Assembly (NCBI GenBank): GCA_018970725.1
Contig: JAGWVU010000002.1
Span: 1 to 64,000, forward strand
DNA length: 64,000 bases
Direction of reading: 5' to 3'
DNA from: Verrucomicrobiota bacterium
Lineage (GTDB): Bacteria; Verrucomicrobiota; Verrucomicrobiia; Verrucomicrobiales; DEV007
Shown: positions 26,544 through 44,857 of the stretch, in pieces
Layout: each line of letters starts with the position of its first letter
How positions within the stretch are numbered: position 1 is the stretch's first letter
Translations under genes and position numbers: made by a program
Notes under the pieces: generated by a model
Told to the model about the DNA's origin: nothing
What the model saw: only the letters and a program-made list of their open reading frames with translations
The model's database searches: none

Positions 26544-27707
26544 ATGCTGACTGTCGCAACTTGCAACTCCCTCTTCATCGTCGGCCTGCTGGCGCTGACC
26601 ACCCCGCGCCTTTGCCTTGGCAACGACGGCAAGGAATCGAAAAAGCCCGAAAAGCACGCGGAACACGCGGAGCACGAGGAGGAAGTCGAACTCGTCGCCA
26701 CGAGCCCGAAGTCCACGGACGTCACGATCACCCAGCCATACGTCTGCCAGATCCATGCGCGGCGTCACATTGAAATCCGCGCCTTGGTCGAGGGCTATCT
26801 GGAGGAAGTCAAGGTCAAGGAAGGCCAGATGGTGCAGCAAGGGGAGGTGATCTTCCAGCTCTACCCACCCCTTTACGAAGCCAAATTGGCCGCGGCCCAA
26901 GCGGAAGCGCTGCGCGCCCAGGTCGAATACGACAACACCATGAACCTGTTCGGCAAGGGGGTCGTTTCGGAACAGGAAGTGAAACTGAAAAAGGCCGAAC
27001 TGGCCAAAGCCGAGGCGGAAGTGAAGCTGGCGCAGGCCGAGTTGGGCTTTGCCTCGATCAAGGCCCCATTCCCCGGCCTCATCGACCGCCAGTATCAACA
27101 ACAGGGCAGCCTCGTCAAAGAAGAGGACCTCCTCACCAGCCTGTCCGATACCAGCGTCATGTGGGTCTATTTCAACGTCCCCGAGGCCCGCTACTTTGAA
27201 TTCCTCGCAATTCAGGGCAAGACGACGGACCGCTCCCGCATCGAACTGAAAAACTCGACCATCGAGCTGCGCCTTGCCGACGGCAACACTTTCAACCACA
27301 ATCCCGGCAACTCCGTCACGGTCGAAGGTCAGTTCAACAACGAGACCGGAAACATTCCCTTCCGGGCCGATTTTCCCAATCCCGATGGCGTGCTCCGTCA
27401 TGGCCAGACAGGCACCATTCTGATTCACCGCAATCTGCAAAAGGCCATCGTCATCCCGCAACGCGCGACGTTCGAGATTCTGGACAAGCAGTTCGTGTGG
27501 CGCATCGATGAACACGATGTCGTCCATCAACAACCCATCGCCATCGCCCACGAACTGGAGGACGTTTTTGTTCTCAAGGAAGGTCTCTCGCTGGAGGACA
27601 AGTTTATCCTCGACGGCGTGCGTCATGTTCACGAAGGGCAGAAGGTCAAATACGACTTCCACAAGCCGGACGAAGTGTTGACGCATCAGAAGTTCCACGC
27701 GGAATAA
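26544..27707 (+). CDS. RND efflux periplasmic adaptor
   Basis: A 387-residue membrane fusion protein of the AcrA/MexA type. It has an N-terminal export signal (about 1-26), then a charged His/Glu-rich stretch (KHAEHAEHEEEVEL) before the lipoyl motif RALVEGYLEEVKVKEG. A helical hairpin around 110-150 precedes the second lipoyl half FPGLIDRQYQQQGSLVKEED, and a beta-barrel with RHGQTGTILI follows. It is first in the adaptor, pump, channel operon. The acidic/His stretch might bind metal, but the pump subfamily looks like hydrophobe/amphiphile efflux. Confidence 0.93.
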   Translation: MLTVATCNSLFIVGLLALTTPRLCLGNDGKESKKPEKHAEHAEHEEEVELVATSPKSTDVTITQPYVCQIHARRHIEIRALVEGYLEEVKVKEGQMVQQGEVIFQLYPPLYEAKLAAAQAEALRAQVEYDNTMNLFGKGVVSEQEVKLKKAELAKAEAEVKLAQAELGFASIKAPFPGLIDRQYQQQGSLVKEEDLLTSLSDTSVMWVYFNVPEARYFEFLAIQGKTTDRSRIELKNSTIELRLADGNTFNHNPGNSVTVEGQFNNETGNIPFRADFPNPDGVLRHGQTGTILIHRNLQKAIVIPQRATFEILDKQFVWRIDEHDVVHQQPIAIAHELEDVFVLKEGLSLEDKFILDGVRHVHEGQKVKYDFHKPDEVLTHQKFHAE

Positions 27708-27759
27708 GCATCCCATCCGACCCTCGACCCACTCGGAAAACCGGGAGACTTTCCACATC

Positions 27760-30700
27760 ATGTTCACGCAGATCCTCTATCGGCCCGCGCTGGCCATTGT
27801 CATTTCCATCATCCTCCTGTTCCTGGGTATGTTGGGGATCAAAACCCTGCCCATCGCCCAGTTTCCTGACATCGCGCCTCCGACCGTGATGGTCTCCATC
27901 GCCTATCCGGGCGCCAGCGCCAACGTCTTGGTGGACGCCGTGCTCATCCCCCTGGAACAGTCGATCAATGGCGTTCAGGACATGCGCTACATGGTATCCT
28001 CCGCCACCAGCGCCGGCGAGGCGACGATCACGATCTATTTCGAACCCGGCACGGACCCGAACATCAACGTCGTCAACGTGCAGAACCGGGTCAACATCAT
28101 GTTGAGCCGTCTGCCGCCCCTGGTGGTTCGGGAAGGGATCCTCGTCAGTCAGGTGGTCCCCAGCATGTTGATGTATGTCAACTTGTTCAGCACGGATCCC
28201 AACGCCGACCAGAAGGATCTCTACAATTACGCCAACGTCTACATCATGCCCGAGCTGAAGCGGATCCAGGGCATGGGTTTGCCCCGCAACCTGGGCAATC
28301 GGAGCTTTGCCATGCGCATCTGGCTGAATCCGGAGCGGATGCGGGCCTACAACATCTCGGTTGAAGACGTCATGAAGGCGGTGGGCGAGCAAAGCATCAT
28401 CGGTTCACCCGGCCGCCTCGGGCAGGCCACCGGGATGACCTCGCAATCCACGGAGTATGTTCTCACCTACATAGGACGATACAACAAACCCGAGCAATAC
28501 GGGGACATCATTCTGCGCGCCAACCCCAACGGCGAGATCCTGCGCCTCAAGGATGTCTGCGTGCCGCCAAAGGCGCGTCCGGATTACGTAGGCGTGCCGG
28601 AGCCCAACGGCGACCCGAAAACCCACAAGCATGAGCACGCCGGAATCGAGTTGGGTTCGGAGTTCTTCGATATCTACTCGGACATCAACGGGCACCCGAC
28701 CGCTTCCATCGTGCTCAAGCAAGCGCCCGGTTCCAACGCCGCCGAGGTGATTGAGCGGATCAAGGAACAGCTGGAGGAGATGAAGAAGTCGTTTCCCCCG
28801 GGCATGGATTACGAGTTAGCCTATGATGTTTCCAATTTCTTGGATGCCTCCATCGAAAAGGTCGTCCACACCCTGATCGAGGCCTTCATTCTGGTGTCCC
28901 TGGTGGTGTTCATGTTCCTCGGGGATCTCAGGTCCACCCTCATCCCCACTCTGGCAGTCCCGGTCTCTCTCATTGCCACCTTTTTCTTCCTCCAGCTGAT
29001 GGGCCTTTCCATCAACCTTATCACGCTGTTCGCCATGGTTCTGGCCATCGGGGTCGTCGTGGATGACGCCATCGTGGTGGTCGAAGCCGTTCACGCCAAA
29101 ATGGCGGCGAAACACCTGTCTCCCTACCGGGCCACCATGGAGGTGCTCCACGAAATCAGCGGGGCGATCATTGCCATCACGCTCGTGATGACCGCCGTGT
29201 TCGTTCCGGTAACCTTCATCCCGGGCCCGGTCGGGCAGTTCTACAAGCAGTTCGGGATCACGATGGCCACGTCCATCATCCTCTCCGGCGTCGTCGCCCT
29301 GACGCTTACCCCGGTGCTCTGCGCGATGATTCTCAAACCGCACGACACGACCGGGGACGGGCATGCCCCGAAACCCAAGAGCTTGGCAACCAAAATCCTC
29401 TTCGGGGCGGGCGGATTGCTGGTTCTGGGCGGGGTGACCTATCTCGCCTACCACCTCTGGGGGCCGCTCGGTTTCCTCTTCATTCTCCTCCCCTTCCTCC
29501 GCAAACCTTTCGATTTCGCCGTGGAGAAGGTCACGCTCGGCTACGCCGCCGTCGTCCGCGGAATCGCTACGCGCCGGGTCCTTACCCTTGCGATCATCGG
29601 AGCCTTCGTCGCGGCTTTGGTCATGGTGAACCTGCAGCTGCCCACCGGCTTCATTCCGGGAGAGGACCAGGGCATCATCTACGCCGTTCTCCAGACACCC
29701 GCGGGTTCCACCCTCGAATACACCAACGCCAAGTCTCAGGAGTTGGAAAAGATCGCCCGTGAATTGGAGGAGGTCACCTCCGTCACCTCCCTGGCCGGTT
29801 ACGAAGTCCTGACCGAAGGCCGGGGATCGAACGCCGGAACCTGTATTCTCAACCTCAAGGATTGGAACGAGCGCAAGAAGACCGCCCGCCAGATCATCGA
29901 GGAGCTTGAGGAAAAGTGTCAGCGCCTCTCCAACGTCAAGCTCGAGTTCTTTGAACCGCCCGCCGTTCCCGGCTTTGGCACCGCCGGGGGCTTCTCCCTC
30001 GTGCTTCTCGACAAGACCCAGTCCAGTGTGGCGGACTACGCCAAACTCGGTCAGGTGACGGAAGACTTCATCGCCGCGCTGAAACAGCGGAAGGAACTAA
30101 AGAACCTTTTCACCTTTTATTCCGCGAATTACCCGCAATACGAACTGCTCATCAACAACGACGTGGCCATGCAGAAGGGCGTTTCCATTGAAACGGCTCT
30201 GGACAACCTGAACATCCTTATCGGCAGCACCTACGAACAAGGTTTCATCCTCTTCAACCAGTTCTACAAAGTCTACGTGCAGTCCTGGCCCGAATTCCGG
30301 CGCATGCCGGAGGATCTGAGCAACATGTTCGTCAAAAACGACAAGGGTGACATGGTGCCCTACTCCGCCTTCATGACGATCAAAAAGCGCCAGGGCCTGA
30401 ATGAGATCAACCGCTTCAATCTCTATCCCGCCGCAGTCATTCAGGGGGCGCCGGCACCGGGATTCAGCACCGGTCAGGCCATCAAAGCTGTCCAGGAGGT
30501 GGCCGCCGACACCAGCGTCGTTCCTCGTGGGTATGCGATCGACTGGTCCGGCCTTTCCTATGATGAGTCCCGGAAAGGTAACGAGGCTATTTACATCTTC
30601 CTCATCGTCGTTGCCTTTGTGTATCTCGTGCTCGTCGGGCAATACGAGAGTTTCATCATCCCCTTTTCAGTCATCTTCTCGCTGCCGGTGGGCGTCTTCG

Positions 30701-31164
30701 GATCATTTTTCTTCCTCAAGGCCATGGGATTGGCCAACGACGTTTACGCGCAGATCGGCTTGATCATGCTCGTGGGTCTCCTCGCGAAGAACGCGATCCT
30801 GATCGTCGAGTTTGCCGTGCAACGCCGCCGGGAGGGCTTGTCCCTCATCGACGCGGCAGTGGAAGGAGCGAAGTTGCGTTTCCGGCCCATCCAGATGACT
30901 TCCTTCGCCTTCATCGCGGGCCTCATCCCGCTGGTGTTCGCGACCGGGGCCGGGGCGATCGGAAACCGCACCATCGGAACCACCGGTGCCGGCGGGATGA
31001 TCCTCGGAACCGTCGTTGGCGTGCTGGTCATCCCCGGCTTGTATTATCTCTTTGGGAAGATGGCTGATGGGAGGAAGATTTTGAAGGATGAAGTGGACGA
31101 ACCGCTCAGCGAGACGCTCGAACACGCGGTTCCGGAAAGCCACCACGATGCCCAACGGGATTGA
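27760..31164 (+). CDS. RND efflux inner-membrane pump (HAE1 family)
   Basis: A 1134-residue proton-driven pump with the AcrB-type plan of two membrane bundles and two large periplasmic loops. It carries the family's N-terminal PIAQFPDIAPPTVMVS and the TM4 segment MVLAIGVVVDDAIVVVEAVH with its two essential Asp residues. It is about 85 residues longer than AcrB. Two insertions account for much of this: a His-rich patch near residues 285-293 (KTHKHEH) and a stretch near 530-585 between TM6 and TM7 with extra hydrophobic segments (LLVLGGVTYLAYHLWG). It sits 52 bases after the adaptor gene in the same operon. Confidence 0.95.
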   Translation: MFTQILYRPALAIVISIILLFLGMLGIKTLPIAQFPDIAPPTVMVSIAYPGASANVLVDAVLIPLEQSINGVQDMRYMVSSATSAGEATITIYFEPGTDPNINVVNVQNRVNIMLSRLPPLVVREGILVSQVVPSMLMYVNLFSTDPNADQKDLYNYANVYIMPELKRIQGMGLPRNLGNRSFAMRIWLNPERMRAYNISVEDVMKAVGEQSIIGSPGRLGQATGMTSQSTEYVLTYIGRYNKPEQYGDIILRANPNGEILRLKDVCVPPKARPDYVGVPEPNGDPKTHKHEHAGIELGSEFFDIYSDINGHPTASIVLKQAPGSNAAEVIERIKEQLEEMKKSFPPGMDYELAYDVSNFLDASIEKVVHTLIEAFILVSLVVFMFLGDLRSTLIPTLAVPVSLIATFFFLQLMGLSINLITLFAMVLAIGVVVDDAIVVVEAVHAKMAAKHLSPYRATMEVLHEISGAIIAITLVMTAVFVPVTFIPGPVGQFYKQFGITMATSIILSGVVALTLTPVLCAMILKPHDTTGDGHAPKPKSLATKILFGAGGLLVLGGVTYLAYHLWGPLGFLFILLPFLRKPFDFAVEKVTLGYAAVVRGIATRRVLTLAIIGAFVAALVMVNLQLPTGFIPGEDQGIIYAVLQTPAGSTLEYTNAKSQELEKIARELEEVTSVTSLAGYEVLTEGRGSNAGTCILNLKDWNERKKTARQIIEELEEKCQRLSNVKLEFFEPPAVPGFGTAGGFSLVLLDKTQSSVADYAKLGQVTEDFIAALKQRKELKNLFTFYSANYPQYELLINNDVAMQKGVSIETALDNLNILIGSTYEQGFILFNQFYKVYVQSWPEFRRMPEDLSNMFVKNDKGDMVPYSAFMTIKKRQGLNEINRFNLYPAAVIQGAPAPGFSTGQAIKAVQEVAADTSVVPRGYAIDWSGLSYDESRKGNEAIYIFLIVVAFVYLVLVGQYESFIIPFSVIFSLPVGVFGSFFFLKAMGLANDVYAQIGLIMLVGLLAKNAILIVEFAVQRRREGLSLIDAAVEGAKLRFRPIQMTSFAFIAGLIPLVFATGAGAIGNRTIGTTGAGGMILGTVVGVLVIPGLYYLFGKMADGRKILKDEVDEPLSETLEHAVPESHHDAQRD

Positions 31165-31273
31165 GTCCGCCGCAACGGCCCTGCCAACCCCTAAGGAGAC
31201 TTAATCGTTTGGCAGGCTTGACATTTCCACAACTTGAGGCTTTGTCAGGACAAGGGGAGGTTCTTCTAAAAAT

Positions 31274-31307
31274 TTCCTTGCCAAGACATCGCGAAGGTCG
31301 CAAGGAA
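31274..31307. promoter_or_regulatory. 8-bp inverted repeat upstream of the outer-membrane channel gene
   Basis: TTCCTTGC (31274-31281) and GCAAGGAA (31300-31307) are perfect inverted copies separated by 18 bases, 41 bases before the channel start. It could be an operator half-site pair or an mRNA hairpin that modulates the third gene of the RND operon. There is no direct evidence for either. Confidence 0.35.
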
Positions 31308-31348
31308 CCCAGACTGCGGACATTTGAAATCATAAAAAGGCCGAAGCC

Positions 31349-32950
31349 ATGATCGGGAACTTTCCAGCGCACATCGGTCTGAACCATTCCTTCGCTCCGG
31401 CGCCTCTTCACGGGGGGCAGCGCGGCGGGTCCAAGACCACCATCGGTGCCGCGGCCCTGGGCCTCCTGGCTTTGTTCGGCACTGTCGGCTGCTCAGTGCT
31501 TCATGTGTGTGAACCCGGCCAGCCGGCCCAGCCTTCCAGCGAGGCCCCGGTCCCGGCCAACTACCCGTCTGGCGGTGGTGCCAAAAACTCGGCGTCCCTG
31601 TCATGGGAGGAATTTTTTGCCGATCCGGTGTTAACCGGCCTGATCCGGGCTTCCTTGGACAACAATCAGGAGCTGAATATCCTCCTTCAAGAGATCGCCG
31701 CCGCCAAAGCCGAGGTCATCGGTCGCAAGGGTGCGTATCTTCCCTTCGTGACCCTCGGGGGCGGTGCCGGCCTCGAGAAACCAGGACGCTTCACGCGGGA
31801 CGGGGCTGTCGAGGAGAATTTGCCGATCAAACCCGGCAAGGAGTTCCCCGAGCCCCTCTCCGAACTCGGCTTGGGAGCTGGGTTCAGTTGGGAGGTCGAT
31901 ATCTGGCGCAAACTCCGCAATGAACGGGACGCCGCCATTCTGCGTTTCCTCGCCACGAAAGAGGGCCGGGGTTTCATGGTGACCAAGCTGGTCTCGGAGA
32001 TGGCGGAGACCTACTACGAATTGCTGGCGCTCGACAACCAACTGGCCTTCATCAAGCAAACCATCCAAATCCAGCAGGACGCGCTGAAGGCCGTGCAGCA
32101 GCAAAAGGCGGCCGCGAAGGCCACCGAATTGGCCGTGCGACGCTTTGAGGCCGAGGTGCTCAAAAACCAAAGTCACCTTTACGCCATCCAGCAGGATATC
32201 GTGGTGAAAGAGAACCACCTCAACTTCCTGGCCGGCCGCTATCCCCAACCGATCGAGCGCAATCCGGCCCTGTTCGTGAGCAAGCAGTTTCAAGCGATCA
32301 ATGCCGGAACACCCGTGGAGTTGCTCAGCAAGCGTCCGGACATCATCCAGGCGGAATTGGAACTCGCGGCCGCCGGTCTGGATGTCAAGTCCGCCCGTGC
32401 CCGGTTTTATCCCTCCTTGGACGTGATGGGAGCCCTCGGCTTGGAGTCCTACCGGGCGGCGTCCATTCTGACCACCCCGGAGTCCGTCGCCTACCGGGCC
32501 GCAGCGGACGTCGTGGGGCCGTTAATCAATCGCAGTGCCATCAAGGCCGCCTACAAAGGAGCCACCGCCTCACAGGTGGCCTCCATTTACAATTACCAGC
32601 AGACCGTCCTGGCCGCCTACGTCGAGGTTCTCAACGAACTCTCACAAATTCAGAATTACACCGCGAGCTTCGAATTGAAGAGCAAGCAAGTCCAAGCCCT
32701 GACAGACTCCGTGGGCATCGCCGGGCAGCTCTTCAATTCTGCCCGGGCGGATTACACCGAAGTCCTGTTCACCCAGCGGGATGCCCTCGAGTCCAGAATG
32801 GATCTGGTGGAACTGAAGCAGCAACAACTCAGTGCCTACGTCAAGGCCTACCGGGCGTTGGGCGGCGGTTACGAGCGCAGCTCTGTCACCGGGCTGGAGG
32901 ATCTGCACGTCAAGACCCCCGTCTTGGCGAAGCAATCCAAGGGCAATTGA
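31349..32950 (+). CDS. RND outer-membrane channel lipoprotein (NodT/OprM type)
   Basis: A 533-residue efflux outer-membrane protein. The N-terminus has an unusually long polar leader (about 30 residues) before the hydrophobic stretch and lipobox LFGTVGC, with Cys48 as the acylation site, so the true start may be downstream. Repeated TolC-type helical motifs follow: LSWEEFFADPVLTGLIRASL near the start and GFSWEVDIWRKLRNERDA and ELLSKRPDIIQAELELAAA later. It is third in the operon, 184 bases after the pump. Confidence 0.92.
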   Translation: MIGNFPAHIGLNHSFAPAPLHGGQRGGSKTTIGAAALGLLALFGTVGCSVLHVCEPGQPAQPSSEAPVPANYPSGGGAKNSASLSWEEFFADPVLTGLIRASLDNNQELNILLQEIAAAKAEVIGRKGAYLPFVTLGGGAGLEKPGRFTRDGAVEENLPIKPGKEFPEPLSELGLGAGFSWEVDIWRKLRNERDAAILRFLATKEGRGFMVTKLVSEMAETYYELLALDNQLAFIKQTIQIQQDALKAVQQQKAAAKATELAVRRFEAEVLKNQSHLYAIQQDIVVKENHLNFLAGRYPQPIERNPALFVSKQFQAINAGTPVELLSKRPDIIQAELELAAAGLDVKSARARFYPSLDVMGALGLESYRAASILTTPESVAYRAAADVVGPLINRSAIKAAYKGATASQVASIYNYQQTVLAAYVEVLNELSQIQNYTASFELKSKQVQALTDSVGIAGQLFNSARADYTEVLFTQRDALESRMDLVELKQQQLSAYVKAYRALGGGYERSSVTGLEDLHVKTPVLAKQSKGN

Positions 32951-35675: not shown

Positions 35676-35759
35676 GGGAACCGATCGCAACCAATGCGCG
35701 GAGAAGCGCAACGCAATCCTCTTGATTTCACCGATCTCCCCGGGCATGATGGTCAGGTG

Positions 35760-36152
35760 ATGGGTCGCGCCCTCCAGATCCTGCTGATCCCGGCCTTGCT
35801 GCTGCTCCAGTGCGCTCCCCTTGCCGCCGGATCTCCGTGCGCCTCCGATGAATCCGGGTGCGGCAGGTGTCCGCTGCCGTGCTGTCAGGAATCCGGTCCG
35901 GATGCGCCGGGATGCTGCTGCCATCACGCTCCGGACCGGGAGCGCGGGCCGGAGCCCGCCCCTTGGCCGCCGGTTTCGAGTCCCCGTGATCCGGTCCCGC
36001 CGGCGGTTTGGACGGAGGTTGCGCCCGGTTTCCCGTGCGCTCCGTTATCCTCCGGAGGAAACGCCCCTTTCACGAGGCCCGGCCCTCCCCTGCCGGGACG
36101 CGCGCTTCCAGCCGTGCGGTTGCCGTTGCTGTTCTGCACCTTGCTCACCTGA
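35760..36152 (+). CDS. Small secreted Cys-rich protein of a copper cassette
   Basis: About 130 residues from the ATG with AGGTG just upstream. It has signal peptide MGRALQILLIPALLLLQCAP, then a dense cysteine region (CGRCPLPCC, GCCCHH), and a Pro-rich remainder ending in a hydrophobic stretch. Eight cysteines lie within about 40 residues of the predicted mature start, with two adjacent His, typical of soft-metal binding. No named family was recognised. It precedes the multicopper oxidase by 103 bases, so a periplasmic copper buffer is an inference from context. Confidence 0.55.
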   Translation: MGRALQILLIPALLLLQCAPLAAGSPCASDESGCGRCPLPCCQESGPDAPGCCCHHAPDRERGPEPAPWPPVSSPRDPVPPAVWTEVAPGFPCAPLSSGGNAPFTRPGPPLPGRALPAVRLPLLFCTLLT

Positions 36153-36255: not shown

Positions 36256-38352
36256 GTGAAATTTCCTTCATCCCATTTCCTCTTTCTTCTGGTTTCCGCG
36301 CTTCTCCCGGCCGCGGGGCTCGGTGCAAGCAACGGTCCCGCGCCGGGCCAACGGGTGGTTTCCTACGACCTGCACATCTCCGGGGATTGGCAGAGCCCCG
36401 CCGGAAAAGCGGTCCGGGTGCTGGCCATCAACGGAGCGATCCCCGGCCCGGTGTTGCGTTTCCGGGAAGGTGACTTCGCGAGGATCACGGTGCACAATGA
36501 TCTCGAACGCGAGGAGACCTCCATCCACTGGCACGGCTTGCTGCTGCCGAACCCGGAAGACGGCGTGCCCGGGGTCACCACCCCGCCGATCGCCCCGGGG
36601 CAATCGCGCCTCTTCCAATTCACGCTGCGGCAGGGCGGCACCTACTGGTATCACTCGCACACCCATCTTCAGGAGCAGAGCGGCGTCTTCGGCGGCATCG
36701 TGGTCGAACCGCGCGGCGGTGAACCGGTGGCAGCGGACCGCGATCAGGTCCTGATCCTCTCCGACTGGACCGACACCGATCCCAAGGAAGTGATGCGCAT
36801 GCTGATGCGCGGGAGCGACTACTTCGGCCTGATGCGGCGCAATTCCCAATCCATCCTCGGCGCCCTGCAATCCGGAAACTTCAAGGACTACGTCAAACGC
36901 GAGTGGAACCGGATGCTGCCGATGGATGTGTCCGACGTCGGCTATCACGCCTTCCTGATCAACGGACGGCGCGAGGCGAAGATCGAAGGCCGGCCCGGGG
37001 AACGGGTGCGGCTGCGCGTCATCAACGCCTCGGCGGCCACCTATTACCACCTCGCTTCCTCCGCCGGTCCGCTCACCATCATCGCCGCCGATGGCCCGCC
37101 GGTGCAACCGGTGAGCCTGCCGATGTTCCTGATGGCCATCGCCGAGACCTATGATCTGCTCCTGACCATTCCGGAACACGGGGAACACGAGCTCCGGTTC
37201 ACGGCGCTGGATGGCAGCGGTCACAGCAGCGCCCGGTTCGGCGCGGGAGAGCCTCACGAGGCGGCGGTGCCTCCCAGACCGAATCTCTACCAGATGGACG
37301 AGATGCTGAATCTCGCGCTTGAGGAACAGGAGGAGGATCCGATGGCCTCGATGCGGCTGCCGCGGCCCGGCTCACCCTACCGGTTGCTCCGTTCCCTCGA
37401 AGATACTTCCCTTCCGTCCGGCTTGCCCCGGCGGAAGATCACCCTGCATCTGACCGGGGACATGAACCGCTATATCTGGAGCTTCGACGGCAAGACCATT
37501 GCCGCGCAACCCTATGTCTACATCAAGAGGGGTGAGATCATCGAATTGGAACTGGTCAACGATACCATGATGCATCATCCGATCCACTTGCACGGCCACT
37601 TCTTCCGCCTGCTGATGGGCCAGGGGGCGCGTGCACCGCTCAAACACACCGTCGATGTGCCTCCGATGAGCCGGCGCACCGTCGAGTTCGAGGCGAACGA
37701 GGAACTCGATTGGATGTTCCACTGCCACATCCTCTATCACATGATGAGCGGCATGGCCCGCGTCTTCCGCTATGAGGAAGAAACCCTGCCACACGCCGAA
37801 GCCTCCTCACCGCCCCGCCATCACCTCGCCGGGCCCGGAGGTCTCGGCGAACACGCCCATGACCCGGGCTATATCTGGGGCGCCGCCTCCCTGCAATCGC
37901 ACATGAGCGAGGGTCTGCTCACCTGGATGAATCCCGGGAACGATCTGATGCTCGCCTGGGAAACCGGCTGGGCGCAGGTCGATACCACGGAATACGAGGT
38001 CGACTTCCTCTACCAACGCTATTTCAACATGAACTTCCAGGCCTTCGCGGGCTATCGGATCACCAACATGGAAGACGCCCGGGACCGGGCCCTCGCCGGG
38101 ATCAACTACCGCTTGCCCCTGATGCTCTGGCTGAACTCCAGCATCGATTCCGACGGCGAGGCCCGGTTCACCCTGTCCAAACGCTTTCAACTCACCCCGC
38201 GGCTCGGCCTGTGGGGCGATCTGTTTTATGATACCGGCAGCCGCTGGGAGTGGAGCACCGGGGCGGACTTTACCCTGACACGCAATCTGGCGATCACCAC
38301 CTCGCACCATTCCGACTATGGCACCGGCGCCGGCGTGCTGCTTCGTTTTTGA
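36256..38352 (+). CDS. Multicopper oxidase (CopA-like) fused to CopB-like outer-membrane barrel
   Basis: A 698-residue protein. A GTG start gives signal peptide MKFPSSHFLFLLVSALLPAAG. The cupredoxin part has all four copper-binding motifs: HWH (91-93), HSH (133-135), HPIHLHGH (441-448), and HCHILYHMMSGM (489-500) with type 1 Cys490 and axial Met500. From about residue 540 it continues into a different domain (YIWGAASLQSHMSEG to the final Phe) with alternating beta strands, resembling CopB/PcoB outer-membrane proteins. Separate CopA and CopB proteins are normal; here both are in one chain. Likely role: periplasmic Cu(I) oxidation anchored at the outer membrane. Confidence 0.9.
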   Translation: MKFPSSHFLFLLVSALLPAAGLGASNGPAPGQRVVSYDLHISGDWQSPAGKAVRVLAINGAIPGPVLRFREGDFARITVHNDLEREETSIHWHGLLLPNPEDGVPGVTTPPIAPGQSRLFQFTLRQGGTYWYHSHTHLQEQSGVFGGIVVEPRGGEPVAADRDQVLILSDWTDTDPKEVMRMLMRGSDYFGLMRRNSQSILGALQSGNFKDYVKREWNRMLPMDVSDVGYHAFLINGRREAKIEGRPGERVRLRVINASAATYYHLASSAGPLTIIAADGPPVQPVSLPMFLMAIAETYDLLLTIPEHGEHELRFTALDGSGHSSARFGAGEPHEAAVPPRPNLYQMDEMLNLALEEQEEDPMASMRLPRPGSPYRLLRSLEDTSLPSGLPRRKITLHLTGDMNRYIWSFDGKTIAAQPYVYIKRGEIIELELVNDTMMHHPIHLHGHFFRLLMGQGARAPLKHTVDVPPMSRRTVEFEANEELDWMFHCHILYHMMSGMARVFRYEEETLPHAEASSPPRHHLAGPGGLGEHAHDPGYIWGAASLQSHMSEGLLTWMNPGNDLMLAWETGWAQVDTTEYEVDFLYQRYFNMNFQAFAGYRITNMEDARDRALAGINYRLPLMLWLNSSIDSDGEARFTLSKRFQLTPRLGLWGDLFYDTGSRWEWSTGADFTLTRNLAITTSHHSDYGTGAGVLLRF

Positions 38353-38389: not shown

Positions 38390-38653
38390 ATGAAAACCAA
38401 ACCGATCCACCCTTCGTTCACCACCGCGCTGCTCGCCCTCGGGCTCGCGTTCACCTCGGTCACCGGAGTGGCCGTCGCCGCCAAGACCAAGCCGTATCCG
38501 CTCAAGGTCTGCCTTGTCAGCGGCAACGAACTCGACAGCATGGGCGGGCCAGTCAGCAAGGTCTACAACGGGCAGGAGATCAAATTCTGCTGCAAACCCT
38601 GCGTGAAAAAATTCGAGGCCAACCAACAGAAATACCTCGCGAAACTCAAGTGA
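38390..38653 (+). CDS. Small secreted TRASH/YHS-like metal-binding protein
   Basis: An 87-residue protein. An N-terminal signal peptide (ending GVAVAA) is followed by CLVSGNELDSMGGP, a central YNGQEIKFCCKPC and a terminal FEANQQKYLAKLK. The Cys-x-x-Ser-Gly and FCCxxC spacing is the TRASH/YHS pattern of metal chaperones for copper or related ions. It follows the oxidase by 37 bases on the same strand, so it is probably in the same operon. The start is the ATG giving the signal peptide; the longer frame overlaps the oxidase 3' end. Confidence 0.82.
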   Translation: MKTKPIHPSFTTALLALGLAFTSVTGVAVAAKTKPYPLKVCLVSGNELDSMGGPVSKVYNGQEIKFCCKPCVKKFEANQQKYLAKLK

Positions 38654-38937: not shown

Positions 38938-40575
38938 TCATTTGATGTCTTGTCCCCAATCGGTGTGGTCGGGGCCATTCCATTCATCCACGTGGGTGCG
39001 CCGCGCCCAACCGTTCCAAGCCGCTTCGAGCCGGGACGCGATCCCGGGATGCAGCCCGATCAGGTCGTGTTGTTCGGTGCGGTCCGCCTCCAGATCGAAG
39101 AGTTGCCAGGCAGCCTTGTGGCGCTGCACGAGCTTCCATTTTCCCTCGCGCACCGCCTTGTTGCCCTCATGCTCCCAAAAGAGCGGCCCGGGGCGGGCGA
39201 GGGGTTTGCCGTCGAACGCGGGGCGCAGACTCACGCCTTGCAGCGGTTCGATTTGGCGTCCGCTGACCTCCGCCGGATATTCCACCCCCGCAAGATCCAG
39301 ACACGTCGCCATGATGTCCACGAGGTGACCCGGCTGTGGTTCGAGCGCGCCGTGTCGCGACGAGGCGATCCCCGCGGGCCAATGGGCGATCAGCGGCGTG
39401 CTGATGCCGCCCTCGTGCGTGAAATGCTTATAGCGCGCGAATGGCGTGTTGTTCAGCATCGCCCAGCTCATGCCGAGCAGCACGTAGCTCCGGGGACTGC
39501 CGATCGCGCCGGGGCCTTTGGTGGTGCCGTTCGGGCCGCCCTCGGCATTCCCACCATTGTCCTGCAGGAAGAGGATCAGGGTGTTGCCGAGTTCGCCTCG
39601 TTCCTCGAGACCCGCGACCAGGCGGCCGACGGAGGCGTCGATGCGATCCACCATGGCCGCATAAGTCGCCATCATCTGATCGAAACGATCCCGCTGGGTT
39701 TCATGGAGCGACTCCCAGGCCGCGACCTCGGGTGGGCGCGGCGCCAGGGTCCATTTCGGGTCCACGATGCCGAGTTCCTTCTGCTTCGCATGGCGCTGCT
39801 CGCGTAGTTTGTCCCAGCCGACCATGTATTTCCCGCGATACTTCGCGATCACCTCCGTCGGGGCGCGCAGCGGGAAATGCGCGGCGCCTTGGGCGATGTA
39901 GAGGAAGAAGGGCTTCTTTGCCGCCCGCGCCTCGTCCACGAACTTCAGGCCCCAGTCGGTAAAGAGGTCGGTCGAATACCAGTTACGGTCCGTTCCGACG
40001 ACGATCTCCGGCGCATCCTTCGGGAGTTCGCGCCCGTTGAGGTAGAGCATCCTGGTGCCCGGCTTGTCGTCCTCGCGCGGGAAAAAGACCTCTCCGAATT
40101 TTGAATTCAGCGAGCGCATGAACCCGCGCTCCCAAGGCGGGGTGCCGTTTTGCTGGCCGAGGTGCCACTTCCCGGTCATCGCGGTGAAGTAGCCCGCATC
40201 GCGCAGCACCTCGGCGATTGTCACGCATCGGGGCAGCAATTTTCCATGGAAGCCCTTGGACTGCGGCTCGACCTTGCTGTCGAGCCAGCCCATGCCGGCC
40301 TGATGAGGATACAACCCGGTGAGGAGGGAGGCGCGGGTGGTGCTGCACCGCGCCGTGTTGTAAAACTGCGTGAAACGCACGCCCCCGCTCGCAAGCCGGT
40401 CAAGATTCGGCGTCGGAATCTCGCTGCCGTAGCAACCGAGGTCGGAAAACCCGACATCGTCCACCAGGATGACGACGATGTTCGGGGGGGTGTCCGCGCC
40501 AGCCGCAACCGCGGGGAGGAACACAGCGGCGATCAAGGCCAGAGCGCGGCGTTGGAGCATCATCATGGCATGCAT
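38938..40575 (-). CDS. Secreted sulfatase (arylsulfatase A family)
   Basis: A 545-residue protein with signal peptide starting MHAMMMLQRRALALIAAV. It is a calcium-dependent sulfatase: metal-binding DD at 39-40 in VVILVDDVGFSDLGCYG, and the formylglycine site Cys77 in CSTTRASLLTGLYPHQAG with Arg81 retained. The motif fits aerobic FGE or anaerobic anSME activation; no activator gene is visible here. It probably desulfates algal or animal polysaccharides. The start was chosen for the signal peptide. Confidence 0.93.
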   Translation of the reverse strand: MHAMMMLQRRALALIAAVFLPAVAAGADTPPNIVVILVDDVGFSDLGCYGSEIPTPNLDRLASGGVRFTQFYNTARCSTTRASLLTGLYPHQAGMGWLDSKVEPQSKGFHGKLLPRCVTIAEVLRDAGYFTAMTGKWHLGQQNGTPPWERGFMRSLNSKFGEVFFPREDDKPGTRMLYLNGRELPKDAPEIVVGTDRNWYSTDLFTDWGLKFVDEARAAKKPFFLYIAQGAAHFPLRAPTEVIAKYRGKYMVGWDKLREQRHAKQKELGIVDPKWTLAPRPPEVAAWESLHETQRDRFDQMMATYAAMVDRIDASVGRLVAGLEERGELGNTLILFLQDNGGNAEGGPNGTTKGPGAIGSPRSYVLLGMSWAMLNNTPFARYKHFTHEGGISTPLIAHWPAGIASSRHGALEPQPGHLVDIMATCLDLAGVEYPAEVSGRQIEPLQGVSLRPAFDGKPLARPGPLFWEHEGNKAVREGKWKLVQRHKAAWQLFDLEADRTEQHDLIGLHPGIASRLEAAWNGWARRTHVDEWNGPDHTDWGQDIK

Positions 40576-40750
40576 GGGGCAAGGCAGGCGACCGGCGCTC
40601 CTTTTCCTGCGCTGGAACGCCATCCGTTGCATGGTTCAAAGCCTTGGATACGCCAAGCCCGAACGTCAAGCCTGACGAGGCGATGCTGGAGAAATGCGGG
40701 ATAAAAGTTGCGCTCCGTCCGGACTTCGGTTGGGGTGGAGGGGATCAACC

Positions 40751-41648: not shown

Positions 41649-42941
41649 TCAGAGGGTGCCGGGCCACCAGGTGTCGAGCTTGGCCCGCAGGGTTTGGACC
41701 CGGGCGGCTTCCGGTGCGACGAGGTTTTTCTCCTCGTGAGGATCCGCAGCAAGGTGATAGAGTTCCGGAGCACCGGCCTCATTTTGCGGGGCGGGAACGA
41801 TCAACTTCCAACCGTCCTCCAGAATCCAGCGCCATCGCAGGCTGGTGGCCGGGTTTTCGATATCGACGAAGTTGTGGGTGAAACATTCCCCGGTCAGGGT
41901 TTTGCGGGCCTCGACTGCGGCGGTGTCGGCGAGGTCGATCCCGGGCAAACCCTCCGGAAGGGGCAGCCCGCAAGCCTTGAGGATGGTGGGAAAGAGATCG
42001 AGGCTGATGACCGGGACATCGCTGCTTTTCGGCGCGAAGGCAGCGTTCGCGGGCCAGCGCACCAGGATCGGCGTCCGCAAACCGCCGTCGTAGGGAGACT
42101 GCTTGGATTTCGGCGCGTATCGCCCGTTCACCGGATCGGTGATCCAGCCGTTGTCGGTGATGTAAACGACGATGGTGTTCTCCGCGAGGCCTTCGCGCTC
42201 GAGGTGGCCGAGCAGGTCCCCGCAGGTTTCATCAAACCACTCGACCATGGCCCAGTATTTGGCCACCGGCAGACTGGGGGTTTTGGCGCGGTATTTGTCG
42301 AGGAGCCGCGCGGGCGGCGTGTGGGGATCGTGCGGCATCATGGGGGCATACCAGAGGAAAAAAGGCTTCTCCTGACGCCGCGCCATGCCGATGAAATCGT
42401 AGATGGGTTGCATGGTTTTGCGGCCGATGTCGAGTCCGTCGTCCCCGTGACGGCCGCCCTTGGACATGCCATGGGTGAACCCGCCGTGGGAAAAATCCCC
42501 GAGCCACCATTTCCCGGTCTGGAAGCTGAGGTAACCGGCCTGCCCGAGCTGTTTGGGCAGGGTGGGCCAAGCCTCGAGATGTTCGATCATCCGCTGGCGG
42601 CCTTGGAGAAACGCCGGGGAAGACTGAAACGCGGCGGGTTTGATCCCGGGAGGCTTGGCCGGATCATTACTGGTGATATGGTGCTCGTGGGGGTAGCGGC
42701 CGGTGATGATGGTGGCCAAGCTGGGGCAGCAGAGGCTGGAGGGCACGTAACCGTGGCGGAACGTCAGGCTTTGCGCCGCCAGGCGGTCGAGATGCGGCGT
42801 GTGGACTTGCGGATGTCCCATGAATCCGTAGTCCTGCCAGTGCTGGTCATCGGACAGGATGAGCACCACGTTCGGCGGGGCGTCGGCGGCTTTGGCCGTG
42901 GCGGGAAGCAGGAGCGCCAGAAGCAGGGGGATCCGGTTCAT
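41649..42941 (-). CDS. Secreted sulfatase with altered activation motif
   Basis: A 430-residue protein with signal peptide MNRIPLLLALLLPATAKA and metal ligands DDQ at 31-33. The modification site reads Cys71-Cys-Pro-Ser-Leu75, followed by ATIITGRYPH, so the Arg expected five residues on (CxPxR) is replaced by Leu. The remaining fold motifs (YITDNG, YDGGLRTPILVRWP) are normal. It is divergent from the permease gene, about 90 bases apart. Activity therefore depends on whether the FGE of this organism tolerates Leu75. Confidence 0.9.
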   Translation of the reverse strand: MNRIPLLLALLLPATAKAADAPPNVVLILSDDQHWQDYGFMGHPQVHTPHLDRLAAQSLTFRHGYVPSSLCCPSLATIITGRYPHEHHITSNDPAKPPGIKPAAFQSSPAFLQGRQRMIEHLEAWPTLPKQLGQAGYLSFQTGKWWLGDFSHGGFTHGMSKGGRHGDDGLDIGRKTMQPIYDFIGMARRQEKPFFLWYAPMMPHDPHTPPARLLDKYRAKTPSLPVAKYWAMVEWFDETCGDLLGHLEREGLAENTIVVYITDNGWITDPVNGRYAPKSKQSPYDGGLRTPILVRWPANAAFAPKSSDVPVISLDLFPTILKACGLPLPEGLPGIDLADTAAVEARKTLTGECFTHNFVDIENPATSLRWRWILEDGWKLIVPAPQNEAGAPELYHLAADPHEEKNLVAPEAARVQTLRAKLDTWWPGTL

Positions 42942-43033
42942 CCCGGCCAGTCTATTCTCCACCCGCCCGGTCCGCAACGAGGCTTTCCGGGAGTGGACAA
43001 CGCGCCCCGGATGTGGCATACACCGCGTCGCCC

Positions 43034-44857
43034 ATGCCCGCCGACCAGATCTTCGTCCTTGTCCTGGTCTTCGCCACCATGGCCCTTTTCGTCTGGGAGA
43101 AGATCCCGCCGGATCTGGTCTCGCTGAGCGTGCTCTTCCTGCTTTTGGTCGTGCCCTTTGACGGTCATCCGGTGCTCCTGCCGGGAAACAAAGCGGAACG
43201 GCTGGCGATCCTGGGAGGGATTTTCGCAAACTCCGCGATCCTGACCGTGAGCTTCATGTTCATCGTGGGAGCCGCGGTGGAACGAACCGGGTTGGTGGAT
43301 GTGCTGGGCCGATGGTTCGGGCAGGTGGCGGGCGGGACCGAGACGAGAACCCTCGTCATCCTCGGGCTTTTGACGGTGTTCACCTCCGCGTTTCTGAACA
43401 ACACGACGGTCGTGGTGGTATTTCTGCCGATGCTGCTCGGCCTCTGCCGCAAGGCGAAGCTGGTGCCGTCCCGGCTTCTCATCCCGCTCTCTTACTTTGC
43501 CATCATGGGCGGGATGTGCACGATCATCGGCACCAGCACCAACCTTGTGGCCAACGGGGTTCTGAAACAGAAGGGGCTGGAACCGTTCTCCATCTTTGAA
43601 ATCACCCCGATCGGGATCTGCCTCGCGACCGGGGCGGGGGCCTACCTCATCCTCCTGGCGCCGAGGCTCCTGCCCAAGCGGGAGAGCCTCGCCACGCTGA
43701 TCGATGCCGAGGACGGGCGCGAGTTCCTCACGGCGGCCATCGTGAGCGAGGATTCCCCGTTGGTGGGCAAGACGATCGGGGAGGCGGGGCTGGCGAAGCG
43801 ACGCGAGTTGCGGGTCATCGAGGTGCGGCGGCGGGGCAACCGGGTCAACACGCCCTTGCCGAAGCTCCGGTTCGAGGCCGGGGACCGGGTGATCCTGAAG
43901 AGCCATGTCTCCGGAGTGATGGGGCTCAATGACCTTCCCGGGCTGGACGTGAGCACCAAGGCCGCGCTCGGCCTGAGTTACGTCCAGACGGAAAAGGCGG
44001 TCATCATGGAAGGGATGATCGGCCCGAAGAGCCATTTCGTGGGCCGCAGTTTGCGGGAGTTGAACTTCCGCCAGCAATATGGATTGATCGTGCTGGCGAT
44101 GCATCGCCAGGGGGAAAACCTCCGGGAGAACTTCGAGAAGGTGCCGCTGGAGATGGGGGACACCCTGTTGTTGGAAGGATCCGCGGAACGGATGAAGCAA
44201 CTCTTCGCGGAGCGGGCGTTCATCAACCTGAGTTCACCCAAGCAGGGGAGCCTGGTCCGGGTGGGTCGGCAATGGATTGCCCTGGCCGCCTTGGCGGCGG
44301 TGGTGGGGTTCGGCTCTCTGGACCTGGTTCCGTTCGAGTGGGTGGCCTTGGGCGCCGCTCTCCTGGTCAGTCTAGGTGGCTGCCTGAGCAGCGACGAGGT
44401 CTACCAATCGGTGGATTGGCGGGTCATCACGATGATCCTCGGGATGCTCGGGTTGGGGGCGGCGATGGACCAGACCGGGGCGGCGCACACCCTGGCGAAC
44501 TCGTTCATGCAGGTCGCCCGCGGCTGGAACCCTGCCCTCATCCTCTCGACGGTCCTCCTCCTGACCATCATTCTGACTGAACTGCTAAGCAACAACGCGG
44601 TCGCCGCCCTGCTGACCCCGCTCGCGATTGAACTGGCGGGGCAACTCGGGCTCGAGGCCAGACCCTTCGCCGTGGCGGTGATGCTGGGTGCCAGTTGCGG
44701 TTTCGCGGTCCCCACGGGCTACCAAACCCACCTCTTGGTCTACGGAGCGGGAGGCTATCGGTTCGCCGATTTCCTCAAGGTCGGCATCCCGCTCGATCTC
44801 CTGACCTGGCTTCTCGGCAGCTGGCTGATCCCGGTTTTCTGGAAACTCTCCCCCTGA
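43034..44857 (+). CDS. SLC13/DASS-type permease with two RCK-C domains
   Basis: A 607-residue membrane protein with two hydrophobic bundles. The N-terminal half has the DASS-like motif FLNNTTVVVVFLPML. Between the halves lie two TrkA-C/RCK-C-like segments (LVGKTIGEAGL and FVGRSLRELNFRQQYGL, each ending in a GD(R/T)-type loop). Sodium-coupled carboxylate or sulfate import is typical. The start was set at ATG 43034. It lies near two sulfatases, so sulfate uptake is plausible but not proven. Confidence 0.88.
   Translation: MPADQIFVLVLVFATMALFVWEKIPPDLVSLSVLFLLLVVPFDGHPVLLPGNKAERLAILGGIFANSAILTVSFMFIVGAAVERTGLVDVLGRWFGQVAGGTETRTLVILGLLTVFTSAFLNNTTVVVVFLPMLLGLCRKAKLVPSRLLIPLSYFAIMGGMCTIIGTSTNLVANGVLKQKGLEPFSIFEITPIGICLATGAGAYLILLAPRLLPKRESLATLIDAEDGREFLTAAIVSEDSPLVGKTIGEAGLAKRRELRVIEVRRRGNRVNTPLPKLRFEAGDRVILKSHVSGVMGLNDLPGLDVSTKAALGLSYVQTEKAVIMEGMIGPKSHFVGRSLRELNFRQQYGLIVLAMHRQGENLRENFEKVPLEMGDTLLLEGSAERMKQLFAERAFINLSSPKQGSLVRVGRQWIALAALAAVVGFGSLDLVPFEWVALGAALLVSLGGCLSSDEVYQSVDWRVITMILGMLGLGAAMDQTGAAHTLANSFMQVARGWNPALILSTVLLLTIILTELLSNNAVAALLTPLAIELAGQLGLEARPFAVAVMLGASCGFAVPTGYQTHLLVYGAGGYRFADFLKVGIPLDLLTWLLGSWLIPVFWKLSP

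What the first reader, a model, noticed from the sequence alone, without database searches (positions are those of the whole stretch)
36256..38352. Multicopper oxidase and CopB-like outer-membrane barrel in one chain
All four copper motifs of a CopA-type oxidase are present, and the same protein continues for about 160 residues into a beta-rich, C-terminal-Phe domain of CopB character. CopA (periplasm) and CopB (outer membrane) are normally separate. Fusion would tether the oxidase to the outer membrane at a 1:1 ratio.
Basis: partly seen in the sequence, partly recalled or inferred. Interest (0 to 1): 0.7.

Follow-up and report, generated by a model that had tools for sequence, protein, structure and literature searches.

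The report
Copper oxidase fused to outer-membrane barrel
A copper-detoxifying enzyme and an outer-membrane barrel that most bacteria make as two neighbouring proteins are made here as one chain; the fusion is real and occurs in many phyla, and isolated cases have been reported before.

Summary
One uninterrupted ORF (36256-38352, 698 aa) carries a complete CopA-type multicopper oxidase (residues ~27-507), a His-rich flexible linker (~509-535) and a 163-residue C-terminal domain. That domain misses the Pfam CopB cut-off alone (13 bits, E=0.067). The family evidence is clear: 14 of 23 homologous domains match CopB (best 1e-9), hhalign to real CopB/PcoB gives 95%, AlphaFold2 gives a 12-stranded barrel (pLDDT 95), and Foldseek's top PDB hit is PcoB.

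It is not an artefact. The same fusion occurs in about ten phyla, and on an MCO tree fused and unfused copies separate by one branch. In 388 Verrucomicrobiota genomes, the 8 with classical CopA are exactly the 8 with stand-alone CopB; 29 others have only the fusion.

PcoB's Cu(II)-site residues (D97-E207) are not retained here, so I favour an outer-membrane-anchored copper oxidase over a proven copper channel.

The concept is not new: fused PcoA-PcoB was noted in Legionella (2012) and a PcoB-like tail on a Bizionia oxidase (2024).

The parts
36256..38352 (+). Fused gene: CopA-type multicopper oxidase plus CopB/PcoB-type outer-membrane barrel, 698 aa
   Evidence: Single open frame; full-length homologs in many genomes
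36256..36327 (+). Sec-type signal peptide (approx. residues 1-24, MKFPSSHFLFLLVSALLPAAGLGA); no twin-arginine motif
   Evidence: Read from sequence; scan of N-termini of fused and unfused homologs
36334..37776 (+). Multicopper oxidase region (approx. residues 27-507)
   Evidence: Pfam Cu-oxidase_3, Cu-oxidase, Cu-oxidase_2; TIGR01480 411 bits, below its 479 cut-off
36526..36537 (+). Copper motif HWHG (residues 91-94)
   Evidence: Invariant columns
36652..36660 (+). Copper motif HSH (residues 133-135)
   Evidence: Invariant columns
37576..37596 (+). Copper motif HPIHLHG (residues 441-447)
   Evidence: H, P, H, L, H, G invariant
37720..37755 (+). Copper motif HCHILYHMMSGM (residues 489-500), with T1 Cys490 and axial Met500
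   Evidence: H489, C490, H491, H495, M500 invariant
37780..37860 (+). His-rich, predicted disordered linker (residues ~509-535)
   Evidence: Model residues 484-504 (protein residues ~509-529) have pLDDT < 50; sequence contains several His
37861..38349 (+). CopB/PcoB-type 12-stranded outer-membrane beta-barrel (residues 536-698), C-terminal Phe
   Evidence: AlphaFold2 pLDDT 95.3, 12 strands; Foldseek top hit PcoB 7pge; hhalign to CopB 95%
38390..38653 (+). Small secreted YHS/TRASH-like protein (87 aa), 37 nt downstream, probably the same operon
   Evidence: Pfam YHS E=3e-6, just below cut-off; homolog within 900 nt downstream in 27 of 33 non-redundant Verrucomicrobiota fusions

Best explanation
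An outer-membrane-anchored periplasmic copper oxidase. The chain is exported unfolded by Sec (inferred from the signal peptide); BAM inserts the C-terminal 12-stranded CopB/PcoB-type barrel (inferred), and the oxidase folds and takes up copper on the periplasmic face, on a short His-rich leash. Its likely job is to oxidise toxic Cu(I) to Cu(II) at the inner surface of the outer membrane, as CopA/PcoA does when free. The barrel most likely acts mainly as anchor and docking base; ion passage through it is possible but unproven. Shown: one chain, oxidase family and motifs, homology to CopB, conservation, one origin on the tree. Predicted: the barrel fold. Inferred: location, export route, substrate, function.
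For: Oxidase. Barrel and CopB homology: 14/23 homologous domains hit PF05275, best 1.1e-9; hhalign 95%, E 2.6e-8 to a profile of PcoB and CopB sequences; Foldseek rank 1 = 7pge PcoB, E 5e-6; 12 strands as in PcoB (PMC9210255). Full-length model pTM 0.88, hard to reach for 673 residues unless the barrel (24% of the chain) is placed confidently relative to the oxidase (my inference; PAE not available). Distribution: the 8 genomes with above-cut-off CopA are exactly the 8 with above-cut-off CopB; the 30 genomes with the sub-threshold oxidase all carry the barrel. The window's genome has no other CopB, no other CopA-like oxidase and no CopC, but has a Cu-ATPase, so the fusion is probably its only Pco-type function. 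Export: a twin-arginine signal was found in 14 of 18 unfused and 1 of 115 fused oxidases; that one lies upstream of a likely start.
Against: No experiment on any member was found. The C-terminal domain alone is below Pfam's CopB threshold. VIA-align ties PcoB (Z 14.6) with other 12-stranded barrels such as KdgM-type porins and OmpLA, so fold alone does not single out PcoB. The Met-rich segment typical of CopA and of the Bacteroidota fusions is reduced in this lineage (7 Met in the ETYD-to-HPIH segment, against about 16-50 in Bacteroidota), so the substrate could differ.
Confidence: 0.72

Rival explanations
1. Oxidase and working conduit: the barrel conducts Cu(II) as PcoB does, so the oxidase hands its product straight to the pore of the same molecule.
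For: Homology to PcoB, which conducts Cu(II) in liposomes (PMC9210255). The extracellular-side acidic residue E130 is kept (E34 of the barrel; E or D in 21/23), and E46 (PcoB E142) and D124 are invariant in A1. The full-length model's pTM suggests the oxidase sits in a defined place on the barrel (inference).
Against: The residues of PcoB's single Cu(II) site are replaced here: D97 by Ser (strand 1, alignment less certain) and E207 by Ser; Q179 is Asn and E187 is Trp. Among 123 non-redundant fusions both acidic site residues are present in only 20. The domain is shorter (163 aa against about 200).
Confidence: 0.3
2. The C-terminal domain is a generic 12-stranded porin-type barrel that resembles CopB by convergence.
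For: VIA-align gives similar Z to KdgM-like porins and OmpLA; the single-sequence Pfam score is weak.
Against: CopB is matched by as many members as the general OMP_b-brl model (14 of 23 each) but has by far the best E-value of any Pfam family (1.1e-9 against 2.4e-4 or weaker); direct hhalign to CopB; PcoB is top by Foldseek, which also uses sequence; the partner is the oxidase family that CopB always accompanies (PMC9210255, PMC3548706).
Confidence: 0.1
3. A laccase-like enzyme anchored on the outer membrane whose main substrate is not Cu(I).
For: It scores below the TIGR01480 cut-off, its Met-rich segment is reduced, and polymer-degrading genes such as sulfatases lie nearby.
Against: Among NCBIfam models it is far closer to copper_res_A (411 bits) than to laccase or ascorbate oxidase models (105-142 bits); the barrel partner and the neighbouring YHS protein fit copper handling.
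Confidence: 0.12
4. An assembly or sequencing artefact joined two genes.
For: None found.
Against: Same junction in dozens of genomes, identity 33-80%, across about ten phyla and complete plasmids.
Confidence: 0.01

Closest known systems
CopA/PcoA copper-resistance multicopper oxidase (TIGR01480) plus CopB/PcoB (PF05275), two-gene operon
   Same: Same oxidase family and copper motifs; same barrel family and strand number; same order with CopA first
   Different: One polypeptide; Sec-type instead of Tat signal; barrel shorter with PcoB's Cu(II)-site residues not kept; TIGR01480 score below cut-off; no CopC in the genome
Fused PcoA-PcoB in five Legionella species (PMC3548706, 2012)
   Same: Reported as fused PcoA and PcoB
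   Different: One sentence in that paper; whether the Legionella fusions belong to this clade or arose independently was not tested here
Multicopper oxidase G2EDV6 of Bizionia argentinensis (PMC11213822, 2024)
   Same: Oxidase with a C-terminal porin-like region said to have some similarity to PcoB
   Different: About 809 aa, from a marine Bacteroidota; annotation only, no family or functional analysis
PcoB of E. coli, PDB 7PGE (PMC9210255)
   Same: 12-stranded barrel, termini on the periplasmic side; aligns over residues 3-163 of the domain
   Different: Stand-alone; has the D97-E207 Cu(II) site; a flexible N-terminal tail in place of the fused oxidase and linker

Membership tests
CopA/PcoA copper-resistance multicopper oxidase (TIGR01480) | Three cupredoxin domains with the four copper-ligand motifs | tested here: met
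CopA/PcoA copper-resistance multicopper oxidase (TIGR01480) | Score above the curated cut-off (479 bits) | tested here: not met
   411 bits; best NCBIfam model by a wide margin; on the tree a sister group to all above-cut-off CopAs sampled
CopA/PcoA copper-resistance multicopper oxidase (TIGR01480) | Twin-arginine signal peptide, as in most unfused members | tested here: not met
   Sec-type N-terminus; pattern scan of homologs
CopA/PcoA copper-resistance multicopper oxidase (TIGR01480) | Cu(I) oxidase activity | not testable with these tools
   Needs biochemistry
CopB/PcoB outer-membrane protein (PF05275) | Pfam gathering score (27 bits) for this sequence | tested here: not met
   13.2 bits, E=0.067
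CopB/PcoB outer-membrane protein (PF05275) | Homology to the family at profile level | tested here: met
   14 of 23 fused relatives hit PF05275, best 1.1e-9; hhalign 95%
CopB/PcoB outer-membrane protein (PF05275) | 12-stranded barrel with both termini periplasmic | tested here: met
   12 strands predicted at pLDDT 95; Foldseek top hit 7pge; periplasmic termini follow from an even strand number
CopB/PcoB outer-membrane protein (PF05275) | Cu(II) site D97-E207 | tested here: not met
   Ser at both aligned positions; position 97 is less certainly aligned
CopB/PcoB outer-membrane protein (PF05275) | Location in the outer membrane | not testable with these tools
   Needs fractionation

The most novel reading that the evidence does not exclude
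An ancient, mostly undescribed family spread over about ten phyla in which fusing CopA to CopB went with a change of export route from Tat (folded export) to Sec (unfolded export plus BAM insertion), giving a bifunctional enzyme that oxidises copper at the mouth of, or passes it through, its own outer-membrane barrel, with a small YHS protein as copper donor in Verrucomicrobiota.
Probability: 0.25. Interest if true: 0.65.

Novelty: new member of a known kind. Interest (0 to 1): 0.42.

Why it matters
How CopA and CopB work together, and even whether PcoB imports or exports copper, is unsettled (PMC9210255, PMC12509749). A natural one-chain version fixes the stoichiometry and geometry of the pair and makes the interaction testable: in Caulobacter the disordered N-tail of PcoB stabilises PcoA and is a suggested docking site (PMC12509749), and here a His-rich linker replaces it. 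The apparent Tat-to-Sec switch asks how a multicopper oxidase gets its copper when it must be exported unfolded.

Tried and rejected
Pfam scan of the single C-terminal domain was inconclusive, so profile and fold methods were used. A profile search of PDB sequences with the C-terminal alignment found designed barrels and LptD rather than PcoB; fold search found PcoB. Degenerate-DNA search with the C-terminal alignment failed, as no stretch was conserved enough; the full-length alignment was used. I tested whether D97- and E207-equivalents rise and fall together in the family: both 20, D only 28, E only 15, neither 60 of 123, not clean enough to claim two functional classes. Prevalence in Bacteroidota could not be measured, because the centre must be a G handle. 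Literature searches for named CopA-CopB fusions found nothing beyond the two papers cited. The frameshift/artefact hypothesis was rejected.

Full report
WHAT IS THERE. The ORF at 36256-38352 (+, GTG start) encodes 698 aa without interruption. It begins with a Sec-like signal peptide. All three Pfam Cu-oxidase domains score far above their cut-offs (140.7, 53.1 and 114.9 bits), ending at residue 508. The ligand motifs HWHG, HSH, HPIHLHG and HCHxxYHxxxGM are present and lie in invariant columns of an alignment that includes Bacteroidota and Fusobacteriota homologs. NCBIfam's best model is TIGR01480 (copper_res_A) at 411 bits, below its 479 cut-off but far above laccase or ascorbate oxidase models.

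THE C-TERMINAL DOMAIN. Residues 536-698 score only 13.2 bits (E 0.067) against Pfam CopB, below the 27-bit cut-off. Taken as a family the relation is clear. Of 23 homologous domains, 14 match PF05275, best 1.1e-9. hhalign against an alignment of PcoB and CopB sequences gives 95% and E 2.6e-8 over 114 columns. In a whole-genome search the CopB model also rang weakly (25.5 and 20.3 bits) inside two open frames of 747 and 710 aa, which carry oxidase motifs too. AlphaFold2 on the domain gives pLDDT 95.3 and exactly 12 strands. Foldseek's best PDB match is PcoB, 7pge, E 5e-6. VIA-align gives PcoB Z 14.6, tied with KdgM-like porins and OmpLA, so the fold alone would not settle it; sequence and fold together do.

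NOT AN ARTEFACT, NOT RARE. Among 57 relatives, full-length homologs occur at 79% identity and below. Tails after the last copper motif are sharply bimodal: about 180-230 aa ending in an aromatic residue for fused genes, 7-47 aa for unfused CopA (one disrupted copy, L081, falls between). The best 80 loci in a scan of one genome per species are all fused; that list is biased, since a fused query ranks fused hits first, but it shows breadth: Verrucomicrobiota, Planctomycetota, Bacteroidota, Balneolota, Nitrospirota, Bdellovibrionota, Acidobacteriota, Pseudomonadota, Ca. Delongiibacteriota, and Fusobacteriota from a plasmid. Several are MAGs.

A LESS BIASED SURVEY. In 388 genomes of the window's phylum, three searches were compared. 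TIGR01480 found 37 genomes at E <= 1e-60. The 8 above its cut-off are exactly the 8 with CopB above its cut-off. The other 29, and G420 which has both kinds, carry the barrel on a sub-threshold oxidase. The two further barrel hits are a frame with an internal stop (G313) and a short fragment near a contig end (G304). So in this phylum CopA and CopB come either as neighbours or as one chain.

ONE ORIGIN. On a tree of the oxidase domain (63 fused, 17 unfused rows) the label changes once, support 90 (SH-aLRT, quick method). The distant outgroup has a long branch, and the Legionella fusions reported in 2012 are not in the sample.

EXPORT ROUTE. A simple pattern scan for a twin-arginine motif followed by a hydrophobic stretch found it in 14 of 18 unfused oxidases and in 1 of 115 fused ones. 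The exceptions are explicable: the fused hit lies upstream of a likely start; of the four unfused negatives, one is a distant oxidase on the Ilyobacter plasmid, one (L183) is the disrupted fusion of G162, and two form the deepest CopA branch. Tat exports folded proteins while outer-membrane barrels travel unfolded through Sec to BAM (established knowledge), so a switch is what a real barrel fusion would require. This independently supports the barrel reading.

NEIGHBOUR. A small secreted YHS/TRASH-like protein (38390-38653) starts 37 nt downstream. A homolog lies within 900 nt downstream in 27 of 33 non-redundant Verrucomicrobiota fusions from the genome searches and in 11 further loci, one of them Planctomycetota, but in none of the Bacteroidota loci. 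It is a candidate copper carrier, on inference only. The window's genome has a Cu-ATPase and no CopC.

MECHANISM. The full-length model has mean pLDDT 87.7 and pTM 0.88, with part of the linker below 50. By my estimate a pTM that high requires the barrel to be placed with fair confidence relative to the oxidase, as if docked on its periplasmic face; the PAE was not available. In PcoB, Cu(II) is held by D97-E207 and passes N115-Q179-E187 (PMC9210255). By profile alignment E130 is kept (E34), E142 is kept (E46), but E207 becomes Ser, E187 Trp and Q179 Asn; D97 aligns near Ser10, less certainly. Only 20 of 123 fusions have acids at both site positions. I therefore commit to an outer-membrane-anchored copper oxidase, with conduction through the barrel possible but not implied.

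WHAT IS KNOWN. Fused PcoA and PcoB were mentioned for five Legionella species (PMC3548706), and the Bizionia oxidase G2EDV6 was noted to end in a porin-like region with some similarity to PcoB (PMC11213822). In Caulobacter the His-containing disordered N-tail of PcoB stabilises PcoA and may be its docking site (PMC12509749); the fusion has a His-rich linker at that place. I found no paper on the family as such in the library searched. The window protein is thus a new member of a known but thinly described kind.

Noticed in passing
38390-38653 (+): Small secreted YHS/TRASH-like protein directly downstream of the fusion, conserved there in most Verrucomicrobiota and one Planctomycetota locus but not in the Bacteroidota loci; possible copper carrier.
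   Followed up: partly
N-termini of MCO genes in L001-L191: Unfused CopAs mostly carry twin-arginine signals while fused ones carry Sec-type signals; the export route appears to have switched with the fusion.
   Followed up: yes
L064 and L168 (genome G420): A genome carrying both a classical CopA-CopB pair and the fusion within a few kb of each other on one contig.
   Followed up: partly
L081 / L183 (genome G162): The fusion gene of one genus g19 member is broken by a stop inside the barrel, while its congeners have intact copies.
   Followed up: no
26544-32950 (+): Three-gene RND efflux system (adaptor-like ORF, AcrB-type permease, NodT-type outer-membrane factor), of the multidrug rather than the Cus type by NCBIfam scores, a few kb upstream.
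   Followed up: partly
35694-36149 (+): Small Cys/His-rich ORF just upstream of the fusion with a weak (35%) counterpart in only one relative (L005).
   Followed up: partly
38938-40632 (-) and 41649-43229 (-): Two sulfatase-like genes flanking a beta-hydroxyacid-dehydrogenase-like gene (named from the sequence, not searched).
   Followed up: no
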